DNA of 64,000 nucleotides from Sphingomonas japonica (lineage in GTDB: Bacteria > Pseudomonadota > Alphaproteobacteria > Sphingomonadales > Sphingomonadaceae), in contig NZ_VDYR01000001.1 in NCBI RefSeq assembly GCF_006346325.1, forward strand, positions 434,001-498,000, given 5' to 3'. Below the pieces are notes generated by a model, which ran no database searches, was not told the DNA's origin, and saw only the letters and a program-made list of their open reading frames with translations. Made by a program: the position numbers and the translations under genes. Shown piece by piece: positions 40,752 through 54,144 of the stretch (its first letter is position 1; every line of letters starts with the position of its first letter).

Positions 40752-41354
40752 ATGCCGAAAGTCCTCGTTCTCTATTATTCTTCCTATGGCCATATGAGCA
40801 TCATGGCCGATGCCATTGCCGAAGGAGCACGCGCCGCCGGTGCGCAGGTCGATGTGTTGCGCGTGCCGGAAACCGCTCCGCAGGCGGTGGTCGAAGCGGC
40901 GTATTTCAAGCAGGATCACACGCATCCGGTCATCGAAGGCATCGACAAGCTCGCCGAGTATGACGCGATCGTGATCGGATCGCCGACCCGGTTCGGACGG
41001 ATGGCCAGCCAGATGGCAAGCTTTCTCGACCAGGCCGGGGGCCTGTGGATGCGCGGCGCCCTGCACGGCAAGGTCGGCGCGGCGTTCAGTTCGACCGCGA
41101 GCCAGCATGGCGGGCAGGAGACGACGTTGTTCTCGATCATCACCAACATGCTGCACTTCGGCATGACGATCGTCGGGCTCGACTATGGCTTTCAGGGCCA
41201 GATGGGCGTCGATGAGGTCAAGGGCGGTTCGCCCTATGGCGCGACGACGATCGCCGACGGCGACGGCAGCCGCATGCCGAGCGCGGTCGAACTCGACGGC
41301 GCGCGCTATCAGGGACGCCGGGTGGCAGAGACGGCTGCGAAGCTGGCCGCCTGA
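40752..41354 (+). CDS. wrbA: NAD(P)H:quinone oxidoreductase WrbA
   Basis: A flavodoxin-like FMN enzyme that reduces quinones by two electrons, protecting against redox cycling. The 200-residue sequence has the FMN phosphate loop [60 protein letters not shown] and [20 protein letters not shown], all diagnostic of WrbA. Length is normal. It is co-directional with the pirin gene, an arrangement that fits response to quinones or electrophiles under the nearby LysR regulator. Confidence 0.96.
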
Positions 41355-41424: not shown

Positions 41425-41459
41425 AAAAAAAAGGGCCGGGGATCGCTCCCCGGCCCTTT
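41425..41459 (-). terminator. Strong intrinsic terminator of the secE-nusG-rplK-rplA operon
   Basis: Perfect 13-base stem AAAGGGCCGGGGA / TCCCCGGCCCTTT with a TCGC loop, followed on the minus strand by a run of eight U (genomic A-run at 41425-41432). It ends the ribosomal protein operon and, with a shorter TTT on the other side, may also stop wrbA transcription. Confidence 0.95.
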
Positions 41460-41483: not shown

Positions 41484-42179
41484 TCAGGCGGCGACTTCGC
41501 TGGTGTCGACCTTGATCCCCGGGCCCATTGACGAGCTGACCGCGATCTTGCGGACATATTTGCCCTTGGCGCCGGTCGGCTTGGCCTTGACCACCGCGTC
41601 GACCAGCGCGTCGAAATTCGCGCGCAGGTCCTCGGCCGGGAACGATGCCTTGCCGATACCCGAATGGATGATCCCGGCCTTTTCGACGCGGTATTCGACC
41701 TGGCCGCCCTTGGCCGCCTTGACCGCTTCGGCGACGTTCATCGTCACGGTGCCGAGCTTGGGGTTGGGCATCAGGCCCTTGGGACCCAGCACCTTGCCCA
41801 GACGACCGACGATGCCCATCATGTCGGGCGTCGCGATGCAGCGGTCGAACTCGATCTTGCCGCCCTGGATGGTTTCCATCAGGTCTTCGGCCCCGACGAC
41901 ATCGGCGCCCGCTTCGCGCGCCTCGTCGGCCTTGGCACCCTTGGCGAACACGCCGACGCGCACCGTCTTGCCGGTACCCTTGGGCAAAGTCACCACGCCG
42001 CGGACCATCTGGTCGGCATGACGCGGATCGACGCCCAGGTTCATGGCGATCTCGATCGTCTCGTCGAACTTCGACGTCGCGTTGGTCTTGGCCAGCGCGA
42101 TCGCCTCGTCGATGTTGTACAGCTTGGCGGTATCGACCGAGGTCGCCAGCGCCTTTGCCTTCTTGCTCAGCTTAGCCAT
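41484..42179 (-). CDS. rplA: 50S ribosomal protein L1
   Basis: The 231-residue L1-stalk protein, which also represses its own operon by binding mRNA in many bacteria. Visible signatures are the N-terminal [40 protein letters not shown] and the RNA-binding signature [19 protein letters not shown]. It follows rplK by four bases. A terminator directly after it separates it from rplJL, which are usually next in line but are absent here. Confidence 0.98.
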
Positions 42180-42183
42180 CGGA

Positions 42184-42615
42184 TCAGCCCTCCACCACTT
42201 CGAGGCCCATCGCGCGGGCGGAGCCTTCGATGATGCGGGTCGCCGCATCGATGTCGTTGGCGTTCAGGTCCTTCATCTTGGCGTTCGCGATCTCGCTCAG
42301 CGCCGAACGCTTGATCTTTCCGGCCGATACCTTGCCCGGCTCCTTCGAACCCGACTTGAGGTTCGCGGCCTTCTTGATCAGATAGCTCGCCGGCGGGGTC
42401 TTGGTCTCGAACGAGAACGACCGGTCGGCATAGACGGTGATGACGGTCGGCAGCGGCGTGCCCTTGTCCTGGTCGCCGGTCTGCGCGTTGAACGCCTTGC
42501 AGAATTCCATGATGTTGACGCCGCGCTGACCCAGCGCCGGGCCGATCGGCGGCGACGGATTTGCAGAGCCCGCGGGCACCTGCAGCTTGATATAGCCTGT
42601 AATCTTCTTTGCCAT
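42184..42615 (-). CDS. rplK: 50S ribosomal protein L11
   Basis: The 143-residue protein of the GTPase-associated centre. The N-terminal [20 protein letters not shown] with [20 protein letters not shown] and the C-terminal RNA-binding domain ([36 protein letters not shown]) are typical. An ATG nine bases upstream is possible, but MAKK is the conserved start. It lies downstream of a palindromic repeat that separates it from nusG. Confidence 0.98.
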
Positions 42616-52493: not shown

Positions 52494-52877
52494 TCAGGCC
52501 GAGCAGCTGAGCTCGCCCTGTCCGGTTTCTGCGATCGTCGCCTTGTTCGGACCGCCGGTGACGGTGATGCCCTCGGCAGTGAATGGCTCGCCGGCCGCGG
52601 GTGCCTTGAGGCGGATCGGCGTATCGCCCTGTTCAGCGCGGTAATTGGCCTGGGTGTCGCCCTGGAAGAAATCGACGTAGCGGAGCACGTTGCCAGGCTG
52701 GCACCGGAACGTCACCGACGCCTTGACCGGCGGTGGCAGTTCGACCGGCGCGGCCTTGGCCTTTTCGTCGGCGAGCGGATCGGGTGCGCGCGTGGTGACC
52801 GTTTCGGTCTCGGGCTTACAAGCGGCGAGCGACGTGGATAGCGCTACCGCGGCGAGCAGGATTGGGAGGTTTCGCAT
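52494..52877 (-). CDS. Small lipoprotein, possible MliC-like lysozyme inhibitor fold
   Basis: A 127-residue protein with a lipoprotein signal (LLAAVALSTSLAACKPE), a short linker and a ~75-residue beta-rich domain (VTFRCQPGNVLRYVDFFQGD to QGELSCSA) whose first and last cysteines could form a disulfide. The pattern of a cysteine after an initial beta strand and a closing TxxC-like end is reminiscent of MliC/C-type lysozyme inhibitors, but the characteristic motif is not clear, so this is a guess. It has its own terminator. Confidence 0.7.
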   Translation of the reverse strand: MRNLPILLAAVALSTSLAACKPETETVTTRAPDPLADEKAKAAPVELPPPVKASVTFRCQPGNVLRYVDFFQGDTQANYRAEQGDTPIRLKAPAAGEPFTAEGITVTGGPNKATIAETGQGELSCSA

Positions 52878-52971: not shown

Positions 52972-53502
52972 TCAGCGGCCGAGGATGACCTCCACCCGGC
53001 GATTCTTCTGCCTCCCCTCGGCATCGTCGCCGCCGGTCGGACCGGCATTGGGTGCGATCGGTCGCAACTCGCCAAGTCCGATAGACTTGAGCCTGGCGCG
53101 ATCGACGCCGCGCTGAGCCGCGAGATAGTCGAGCACCGCTTCGGCGCGCGCTTCGGACAAGCGCTGATTGTAGGCGTCATCGCCCTTGGCGTCGGTATGG
53201 CCTTCGACCGACACACTCGGAGGATTCTGTGCCGCGATCAGCGCTGCGAGCTTGTCGAGCGTCCCCCGTGCGTCCGGCTGGATCGTCGCCTTGTCGAAGT
53301 CGAAGGTCACGTCGCCCGGCAGCGACACCAACGTGCCGCGATCGGTCTGCGTGGCACCAAGGTCGGACTGGAGCGACTGAACCTGGCTCAACTGGGTCTG
53401 CCCCGAGCCATTGCCCGCCGCAAGGCCGCTCTGCACCCCGCCGGCGCTGCGCAACTGCGAATTGCCGGCGGCGAATGCCCTTAGGCTACTGACTTTTTTT
53501 TT
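52972..53502 (-). CDS. OmpA-type peptidoglycan-binding domain, probable -1 frameshift continuation of the upstream lipoprotein
   Basis: From the A-run onward this frame encodes 176 residues: a serine/glutamine-rich linker (AFAAGNSQLRSAGGVQSGLA) and a complete OmpA C-terminal domain. The domain has VTFDFDKATIQPDARGTLDK, VEGHTDAKGDDAYNQRLSEA with the peptidoglycan-contacting Asp and Arg, and EGRQKNRRVEVILGR. It has no signal peptide, no ATG and no visible ribosome-binding site; the only candidate start is a TTG at 53454. Alone it could not reach the periplasm. A -1 shift in the A-run joins it to the preceding lipoprotein frame. Confidence 0.85.
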   Translation of the reverse strand, partial: KKKVSSLRAFAAGNSQLRSAGGVQSGLAAGNGSGQTQLSQVQSLQSDLGATQTDRGTLVSLPGDVTFDFDKATIQPDARGTLDKLAALIAAQNPPSVSVEGHTDAKGDDAYNQRLSEARAEAVLDYLAAQRGVDRARLKSIGLGELRPIAPNAGPTGGDDAEGRQKNRRVEVILGR

Positions 53503-54086
53503 GAGCCGTCGTCGGAATAGGCCGCAGTCGTCACCGGGATGTCGACGACGAATTTGGGATTGTAGGAGCCTTCGCTCGTGCCGCCATTCTCGTTGATGAC
53601 CAGTTGCACCTGCGGGCCTTCGGGCACCGCGCCGATGAAGACGAGATCACCGGTGACGGTGGCGCCGCTGGCGATCTTGACGTCTTCGTCGGTGATCGGC
53701 GGCGACAGGAAGAATTTGCGGTTATTGGCAAGCAGATAGGTGTGCTTGCTGTAATTGGCCCAGTTCAGCTGAACCTCGCGGCGGTGGCCGTTGACATAGG
53801 TCATGTTGACCACGGTCTCGGTCGGCTTGACCTGGATCGAGTTGAGCCGGAGCACGCCACCATTGGGGTGAATCTGCTCCACCGACAGCTTCATCGGCGT
53901 GCCGTTGTTGAGCAGCTTGTCGAAGATGCCCGCTTCTTCCGGCGTCAGGTCCGCCGCGTTGTCGCCGCTGGCGGCTGCGGTCTCGCCGTCCAAAGCGGCC
54001 GCCTCTTCGTCCGAACGGACGTTGCACGCCGACAGCGCGAACGCCGCGGCAAGGACCATCGTCATCGGTATCAACGCTGGCTTCAT
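53481..54086 (-). CDS. Lipoprotein whose frame ends just after an A9 run; N-terminal half of a probable OmpA-family fusion
   Basis: A 201-residue lipoprotein (lipobox ALSACNV). An acidic linker and a ~120-residue beta-rich domain follow (MKLSVEQIHPNGGVLRLNSI, VNMTYVNGHRREVQLNWANY, KFFLSPPITDEDVKIASGAT) resembling immunoglobulin-like DUF4352 domains. The frame reads TCA AAA AAA AAG TCA and stops three codons after the A-run. Everything after the run that looks conserved is in the -1 frame. The full-length shifted product would have about 371 residues: outer-membrane-anchored lipid, Ig-like domain, then peptidoglycan-binding domain. Confidence 0.82.
   Translation of the reverse strand: MKPALIPMTMVLAAAFALSACNVRSDEEAAALDGETAAASGDNAADLTPEEAGIFDKLLNNGTPMKLSVEQIHPNGGVLRLNSIQVKPTETVVNMTYVNGHRREVQLNWANYSKHTYLLANNRKFFLSPPITDEDVKIASGATVTGDLVFIGAVPEGPQVQLVINENGGTSEGSYNPKFVVDIPVTTAAYSDDGSKKKSVA
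53494..53502 (-). other. A9 slippery run at the junction of two frames
   Basis: On the coding strand there are nine consecutive A's followed by G, containing the heptamer A AAA AAG in the correct phase for tandem -1 slippage (the heptamer used by E. coli dnaX). An eight-base-pair stem (CCGCCGGC / GCCGGCGG) begins about 21 bases downstream. That is farther than usual for a frameshift stimulator. Transcriptional slippage, a fixed mutation or an assembly error are alternatives. Confidence 0.6.
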
Positions 54087-54144
54087 CGCTCGCTTCTCCG
54101 GATCGTTGCGTTGCAGCAATAACTCGCTGGCAGGACGCAGGTTC

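What the first reader, a model, noticed from the sequence alone, without database searches (positions are those of the whole stretch)
52972..54086. Envelope lipoprotein and OmpA domain split by an A9 run: candidate programmed -1 frameshift
The minus-strand gene encodes a signal peptide with lipobox and an Ig-like domain, then reads TCA AAA AAA AAG and stops after three more codons. The -1 frame continues directly with a linker and a complete OmpA peptidoglycan-binding domain that has no signal peptide, no ATG and no ribosome-binding site. The A AAA AAG heptamer is in the right phase for tandem slippage, and nine A's are also enough for RNA polymerase slippage. The result would be two products from one gene: a plain lipoprotein (201 aa) and a wall-tethered version (~371 aa). 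A simple frameshift mutation, phase-variable tract or sequencing error are real alternatives.
Basis: partly seen in the sequence, partly recalled or inferred. Interest (0 to 1): 0.75.

Follow-up and report, generated by a model that had tools for sequence, protein, structure and literature searches.

The report
Conserved slippery A9 makes two lipoproteins
A run of nine A's in a sphingomonad envelope gene, kept across several genera, probably lets one gene make both a free outer-membrane lipoprotein and a longer form that grips the cell wall; the comparative sequence evidence is strong, but no expression has been measured.

Summary
In detail: a lipoprotein ORF (53481-54086, minus strand) ends just after an A9 run (53494-53502), and the -1 frame continues into a linker and an OmpA domain. 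It is not a private mutation. All 10 loci found with this layout, in four genus groups and down to 30% N-part identity, carry GGC-TCA-A9, end soon after it in frame 0 and encode OmpA in frame -1. Of 120 listed homologues of the short product, 114 hold GSKK. Both halves are under purifying selection (dN/dS 0.09-0.29). Two relatives encode the long form in one frame but keep A10. Other lineages use two overlapping genes: short plus long (14 loci, one with OmpA lost), or short plus a separate OmpA lipoprotein (10).

Best reading: programmed poly-A slippage gives a short free lipoprotein and a long, probably peptidoglycan-binding one. RNA polymerase slippage looks more likely than ribosomal -1 frameshifting, since all nine A's are kept and no shared hairpin or Shine-Dalgarno stimulator was found; the mechanism and both products remain unmeasured. 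The kind of recoding is known; this gene family is new to it in the papers I could search.

The parts
54096..54099 (-). GGAG, likely Shine-Dalgarno of the gene
   Evidence: sequence; by eye
53481..54086 (-). short ORF, frame 0: lipoprotein of 201 aa ending ...SDDGSKKKSVA
   Evidence: 120 homologues listed
54024..54086 (-). signal peptide and lipobox LSAC, Cys 21 being the lipid anchor
   Evidence: and pattern (a lipobox-like match in 12 of 12 loci)
53535..53894 (-). Ig-like beta-sandwich domain (YcdA/YjhA-like fold)
   Evidence: AlphaFold2 model, mean pLDDT 77.8; Foldseek to 4r4g and 3cfu, E 1e-4 and 2.7e-4, TM by query about 0.43
53494..53502 (-). A9 slippery run (holds A_AAA_AAA and A_AAA_AAG in phase)
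   Evidence: A9 in 10 of 10 loci of this layout, A10 in 2 further loci
53481..53483 (-). TAA stop of frame 0
52972..53502 (-). -1 frame extension: KKKVSSLR..., linker and OmpA domain, 176 codons
   Evidence: dN/dS 0.09-0.28 in four species pairs
53035..53307 (-). OmpA domain (PF00691)
   Evidence: E 4.4e-22; OprF, YiaD, YfiB and OmpA structures by sequence

Best explanation
This is a programmed two-product gene. Shown by comparison: the A run, the end of frame 0 soon after it and the OmpA frame beyond it are kept together over long divergence, and both halves are under purifying selection. Inferred: RNA polymerase slips on the A9 run. mRNAs with nine A's give the short lipoprotein; mRNAs with ten (or seven) give the long form with the OmpA domain. 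Ribosomal -1 slippage on the same A's may contribute. Inferred function: both forms are lipid-anchored in the outer membrane and only the long one binds peptidoglycan, so the run sets a ratio of free to wall-bound lipoprotein. The confidence is for programmed slippage mainly by RNA polymerase; programmed slippage by either route together is about 0.88.
For: A9 with GGC TCA before it in 10 of 10 loci of this layout, four genus groups. In the nine-locus codon alignment, 34 invariant N-part residues have a synonymous choice and 7 use one codon throughout: 4 are GGC TCA AAA AAA at the run, 3 of 30 lie elsewhere; TCA is 4.8% of Ser and AAA 20.6% of Lys codons. GSKK in 114 of 120 listed homologues. 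dN/dS 0.10-0.29 before the run and 0.09-0.28 in the OmpA part. Two loci with A10 code the long form directly and keep the run; in 12 of 12 loci it is the ten-A transcript that codes the long form. The base after the run is G in five and C in five. No compensatory pair in the consensus fold; anti-SD pairing weak (-2.1 to -3.8 kcal/mol) in 7 of 9. tRNA-Lys CUU as well as UUU in the genome. Two-gene relatives encode a short product and an OmpA partner. Precedents: Thermus dnaX A9 (passages of PMC1088944), tssM1 A11 (PMC4256274, abstract and section 8), a nine-A cassette at 40% in E. coli (PMC3711429 section 24).
Against: No RNA or protein data. Two overlapping heptamers used together would also fix all nine A's, so the conservation does not decide between polymerase and ribosome. 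In A9 loci the direction is always -1, which PMC3711429 section 10 takes as a sign of ribosomal frameshifting. Anti-SD pairing is -7.9 in G021 and -5.3 in G608, and a hairpin spans the run in G382 and G767. In G831 one of the two other frames stays open 48 codons. Distribution is patchy (22 of 295 genus genomes), so the gene is dispensable in most species.
Confidence: 0.6

Rival explanations
1. Programmed, but the ribosome slips -1 on A_AAA_AAA or A_AAA_AAG/C and transcription is faithful.
For: Two in-phase heptamers; -1 in all ten A9 loci; tRNA-Lys UUU present. A -1 slip in the A10 loci would also give a shorter product (early stop in G802, 48 codons in G831).
Against: No conserved downstream hairpin and weak upstream anti-SD pairing in 7 of 9; AAC as last codon in five of ten; A9 kept beyond either heptamer alone.
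Confidence: 0.28
2. Phase variation: replication slippage at the run switches the OmpA form on and off between cells or strains.
For: Homopolymer in a surface gene; species differ as A9 or A10; four of 114 GSKK proteins (P0034, P0037, P0063, P0071) imply A8 if the preceding codon is TCA.
Against: A9 exactly in 10 of 10 loci over large divergence; the two A10 loci are relatives of each other (75% identity); the read-through search over 204-649 aa found no in-frame long homologue of this type (close relatives only). One genome per species, so variation within a species was not tested.
Confidence: 0.05
3. The OmpA part is translated on its own, by coupling or internal initiation, giving two separate proteins.
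For: In 10 relatives a separate OmpA lipoprotein follows the short gene, with a possible start overlapping or next to the stop.
Against: The -1 frame has no start codon common to all nine loci compared and no signal peptide; the A10 loci fuse the two parts.
Confidence: 0.03
4. Frameshift mutation, decaying gene or assembly error.
For: A homopolymer is where such errors fall.
Against: Same A9 in ten independent genomes and purifying selection on both halves.
Confidence: 0.02

Closest known systems
Thermus thermophilus dnaX (tau/gamma), A9 transcriptional slippage
   Same: Nine A's in a coding strand, two lengths of one protein (passages of PMC1088944)
   Different: There the long form is templated and the short one comes from slippage, as in our A10 loci; in the A9 loci the short form is templated. 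Unrelated gene.
Citrobacter rodentium tssM1, A11 transcriptional slippage
   Same: Templated product stops after a poly-A run; slippage gives the full-length envelope protein; both forms needed (PMC4256274 abstract and section 8)
   Different: T6SS inner-membrane protein; here an outer-membrane lipoprotein that gains a wall-binding domain, with the run shared by four genus groups
Bacterial -1 ribosomal frameshifting on A_AAA_AAG (E. coli dnaX, IS3-type elements; recalled)
   Same: Same heptamer in phase
   Different: No conserved SD or hairpin stimulator; all nine A's kept
YiaD/YfiB/Pal-type OmpA-domain lipoproteins (NF053611, NF053585, TIGR02802)
   Same: OmpA domain on a lipid-anchored protein; matches below the families' cut-offs
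   Different: Here the domain is optional and joined to an Ig-like domain across a frame change
B. subtilis YcdA and YjhA lipoproteins (4r4g, 3cfu)
   Same: Fold of the N-terminal domain
   Different: Sequence identity 14-16%; Pfam gives no confident match

Membership tests
Programmed transcriptional slippage genes | Coding-strand homopolymer of about nine A's kept in orthologues | tested here: met
   A9 in 10 of 10 and A10 in 2 of 2 loci
Programmed transcriptional slippage genes | Selected coding sequence in the frame reached by slippage | tested here: met
   dN/dS 0.089-0.278 in four pairs
Programmed transcriptional slippage genes | Orthologues with a different templated frame at the same run (criterion of PMC3711429 section 10 is different direction) | tested here: inconclusive
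   Template switches from short (A9, 10 loci) to long (A10, 2 loci); all A9 loci share -1
Programmed transcriptional slippage genes | mRNAs of mixed A number | not testable with these tools
   needs native cDNA
Ribosomal -1 frameshift genes | In-phase slippery heptamer | tested here: met
   A_AAA_AAA, and A_AAA_AAG or A_AAA_AAC
Ribosomal -1 frameshift genes | Upstream SD-like and/or downstream structural stimulator | tested here: not met
   Not conserved: consensus fold -1.26 kcal/mol with 0 compensatory pairs; anti-SD weak in 7 of 9. Exceptions: anti-SD in G021 and G608, run-spanning hairpin in G382 and G767
OmpA-domain peptidoglycan-binding proteins | PF00691 domain over its gathering score | tested here: met
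   78.7 bits against 27.2
OmpA-domain peptidoglycan-binding proteins | Asp and Arg of the peptidoglycan-binding site (recalled) | tested here: met
   Motif EGHxDxxGxDxYNxxLSxxRAxAV in 12 of 12 long frames; binding itself not tested
DUF4352 | Pfam match over cut-off | tested here: not met
   2 of 36 members match weakly, best E 0.012; similarity is of fold only
Phase-variable homopolymer genes | Run length varies within a species | not testable with these tools
   One genome per species in the search

The most novel reading that the evidence does not exclude
The A run is a ratio-setting device that splits one outer-membrane lipoprotein into free and wall-anchored forms, and the Sphingomonadaceae have built that ratio in several ways: slippage from a short template (A9), slippage from a long template (A10), a short gene coupled to an in-frame long gene, and a short gene coupled to a separate OmpA lipoprotein. 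The two-gene form would be a slippage gene resolved by duplication: a natural record of how recoding is gained or replaced.
Probability: 0.45. Interest if true: 0.82.

Novelty: new member of a known kind. Interest (0 to 1): 0.7.

Why it matters
Well-supported programmed frameshifts in ordinary bacterial genes, outside mobile elements, dnaX and prfB, are few (general knowledge). This one would give a clear choice, with or without a wall-binding domain, from one gene, and it comes with natural variants (A9, A10, duplicated, split). That makes two questions testable: how recoding sites arise and are replaced, and whether cells need a set ratio of free to wall-bound outer-membrane lipoprotein. It also suggests that annotation misses the OmpA half of this family, since its named short forms are listed as hypothetical or DUF4352 proteins.

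Tried and rejected
Error or private mutation: rejected by the same run in ten genomes. Separate initiation of OmpA: no start codon common to the nine loci. Stimulatory hairpin or SD: not conserved; a strong hairpin spanning the run in G382 and G767 only (z -5.06 and -4.25). Order of events: trees place the duplicated type inside the A9 type weakly (branch 91/56 on the OmpA tree, 92/69 on the N tree; midpoint root), and the AU test does not reject the A9 type as one clade (p 0.267 and 0.278), so it is left open. Families for the N domain: no confident name.

Papers: searches returned 0 papers; others listed 39, 21 and 18 (20, 10 and 15 shown). Seen: PMC3711429 (sections 10 and 24, passages), PMC5009743 (term search without hits; 300,000 of 475,107 characters held), PMC1088944 (passages), PMC4256274 (abstract, outline, section 8). 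The others were seen as listings only. Sharma et al. 2011 (recalled) was not held, and the supplements of PMC3711429 were not seen, so this family could be in either.

Left out of counts: weak or partial genome hits G084, G328, G409, G420, G669, G491 and G427 were not classified; G379 shows the N domain without OmpA in its locus; G240's second gene has lost its OmpA part. The codon and RNA tests used 9 loci and the selection test 5, because G818, G802 and G831 were found later; these three are not in the trees either.

I had written that G818 shares both flanks with the A10 loci; only the upstream flank was seen. I had written 8 of 9 for missing SD; it is 7 of 9 weak.

Full report
What is there. 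The minus strand at 54086-53481 encodes a 201-aa lipoprotein (signal peptide, lipobox LSAC) ending ...SDDGS KKK SVA stop. The A run at 53494-53502 has nine A's. The -1 frame runs on for 176 codons from the run, through a linker and an OmpA domain (PF00691, E 4.4e-22), to 52972. Solved relatives of that domain include OprF, YiaD, YfiB and OmpA. The N-terminal domain is an Ig-like beta sandwich in an AlphaFold2 model (mean pLDDT 77.8), closest in fold to the Bacillus lipoproteins YcdA and YjhA (E 1e-4 and 2.7e-4, TM by query about 0.43). Pfam gives it no confident name.

Is the run unusual? In 464 kb of the same genome (window plus 20 stretches, 66% GC) there is one A/T run of nine, two of eight and three of seven; the nine is this one. 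TCA is 4.8% of serine codons and AAA 20.6% of lysine codons.

Relatives. Six-frame genome searches do not depend on annotation. They covered 61 relatives (8 with a hit), 295 of the genus (22), 397 of the family (18 and 15), 196 of the order (7), 247 relatives of G382 (6), the one genome of G382's genus (1), 11 of the genus of G608 (1), 60 of the genus of G767 (4) and 326 relatives of G802 (11). The samples overlap, the own genome is among them, and the first look is limited, so misses are likely. Most genomes have no match. Thirty-seven genomes gave a clear N-domain match. By layout: one gene with A9 and OmpA in the -1 frame, 10 (G000, G027, G010, G152, G075, G021, G382, G608, G767, G818); one in-frame gene with A10, 2 (G802, G831); a short gene followed by an in-frame N-plus-OmpA gene, 14 (in G240 the second gene has lost OmpA); a short gene followed by a separate OmpA lipoprotein, 10; N domain only, 1 (G379). 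Named records for two A9 loci are S. spermidinifaciens and S. baiyangensis; sources name S. qomolangmaensis, S. radiodurans, Qipengyuania sp. JC766 and Altererythrobacter aerius among short homologues.

The A9 loci. In 10 of 10 the sequence is GGC TCA AAA AAA AA and then G (5) or C (5). Frame 0 ends 4 to 28 codons on, counted from TCA. Frame -1 always gives KKK, V or L, S, then linker and OmpA. N-part identity between loci falls to 30% (nine loci). In that codon alignment 34 invariant N-part residues had a synonymous choice and 7 used one codon throughout; four of the seven are GGC TCA AAA AAA, leaving 3 of 30 elsewhere. GGC is the commonest glycine codon, so the telling ones are TCA and the two AAA. 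At protein level 114 of 120 listed short homologues hold GSKK, followed by N (90), K (20), T (3) or I (1); 94 of the 114 end 1 to 4 residues after GSKK and 20 end 8 to 25 after it. That search admitted proteins up to 352 aa only, so it was blind to long in-frame forms. A second search with the 371-aa read-through, scored on its N part, admitted 204-649 aa and found one short homologue and no long one; as a single-sequence search it reaches only close relatives.

Selection. In four species pairs dN/dS is 0.102, 0.160, 0.291 and 0.289 before the run and 0.089, 0.264, 0.211 and 0.278 in the OmpA part. An untranslated remnant would not look like this. The OmpA frame holds ATG/GTG/TTG codons, but none is present in all nine loci; those that recur in most lie 171-192 bases on, at the start of the OmpA domain itself, and no shared one lies next to the frame-0 stop.

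The A10 loci. G802 and G831 read GCA AAA AAA AAA TCT or TCG in one frame into the OmpA domain (open frames of 367 and 369 aa). They look orthologous: the upstream flank matches that of G818, and the downstream flank matches those of G382 and G608. In G802 the other two frames end 5 and 9 codons on; in G831 9 and 48. So the template has switched from short to long while the run remained. In 12 of 12 loci it is the ten-A transcript that codes the long form. This resembles Thermus dnaX, where the long form is templated and slippage gives the short (passages of PMC1088944).

The two-gene lineages. In 23 of 24 two-gene loci the nearest possible start of gene 2 overlaps the TGA of gene 1 (ATGA, GTGA or TTGA); in the other it follows as TGATG. 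The script picked the start nearest the stop, so these are candidate starts. The pattern suggests translational coupling. In 14 loci gene 2 is a second N-domain lipoprotein, 13 of them with OmpA in frame, such as P0121 of S. mucosissima. None of the 28 proteins found with that one holds SKK or KKK. These lineages make a comparable pair of products without a run. On the OmpA tree each two-gene type is one group at 100/100; the duplicated type sits inside the A9 type, but weakly, and the AU test does not reject the A9 type as a clade. Which came first is open.

Mechanism. Either polymerase or ribosome can slip on A9. For transcription: all nine A's are fixed, including the third base of TCA, which the 3' heptamer does not need, and the last two, which the 5' heptamer does not need; the last codon is AAG in five and AAC in five; the genome has tRNA-Lys CUU beside UUU; the consensus fold has no compensatory pair; anti-SD pairing upstream is weak in 7 of 9, -5.3 in G608 and -7.9 kcal/mol in G021; and the template switches to A10. 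For the ribosome: two in-phase heptamers and a constant -1 direction in the A9 loci, which PMC3711429 section 10 takes as a sign of ribosomal frameshifting. Two heptamers used together would also fix nine A's. The evidence leans and does not decide. PMC4256274 used the same lack of SD and hairpin as a pointer in tssM1 and then showed mixed A numbers by mass spectrometry of cDNA (section 8). In E. coli a nine-A cassette of another gene gave 40% (PMC3711429 section 24).

Function, inferred. Both products should reach the outer membrane by the lipobox; only the long one carries the OmpA domain, whose binding motif is kept in 12 of 12 (role of the residues recalled). The run would set how much of this lipoprotein is wall-bound. 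What the Ig-like domain does is unknown.

Known or new. Poly-A slippage giving two products is a known kind. In the searches listed under Tried and rejected I found no report of an OmpA or sphingomonad case; supplements and Sharma et al. 2011 were not seen, so a row there cannot be excluded.

Noticed in passing
window 41425-41432: The other A/T run of 8 or more in the window, A8, lies between a WrbA-like gene (40752-41354, +) and a ribosomal protein L1-like gene (41484-42248, -), beside what looks like an inverted repeat; probably a terminator (gene names by eye).
   Followed up: partly
L041 (G382) and L086 (G767): The A run lies in the loop of a 9-bp hairpin GACGGCTCA...TGAGCCGTC (span z -5.06 and -4.25); not conserved in the other seven loci.
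   Followed up: partly
P0034, P0037, P0063, P0071: SKKT or SKKI instead of SKKN/K, which implies A8 if the serine codon is TCA; contig errors or real A8 loci whose OmpA frame would need the other direction.
   Followed up: no
L029 (G240) 2019-2768: The second gene's N domain runs into an EAL-domain-like sequence instead of OmpA; P0139 is a similar protein named EAL domain-containing.
   Followed up: no
P0121 (S. mucosissima): UniRef names this OmpA lipoprotein a Photosystem I P700 apoprotein; PDB 7f4v chain aB, so titled, carries an OmpA domain. Probably a name carried over by that domain.
   Followed up: no
genus-wide: The N-domain family is patchy: 22 of 295 genus genomes match, so loss or transfer must be common.
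   Followed up: no
window 52494-52877: A small lipoprotein ORF follows the gene; similar ones follow it in L002, L003 and L040.
   Followed up: no
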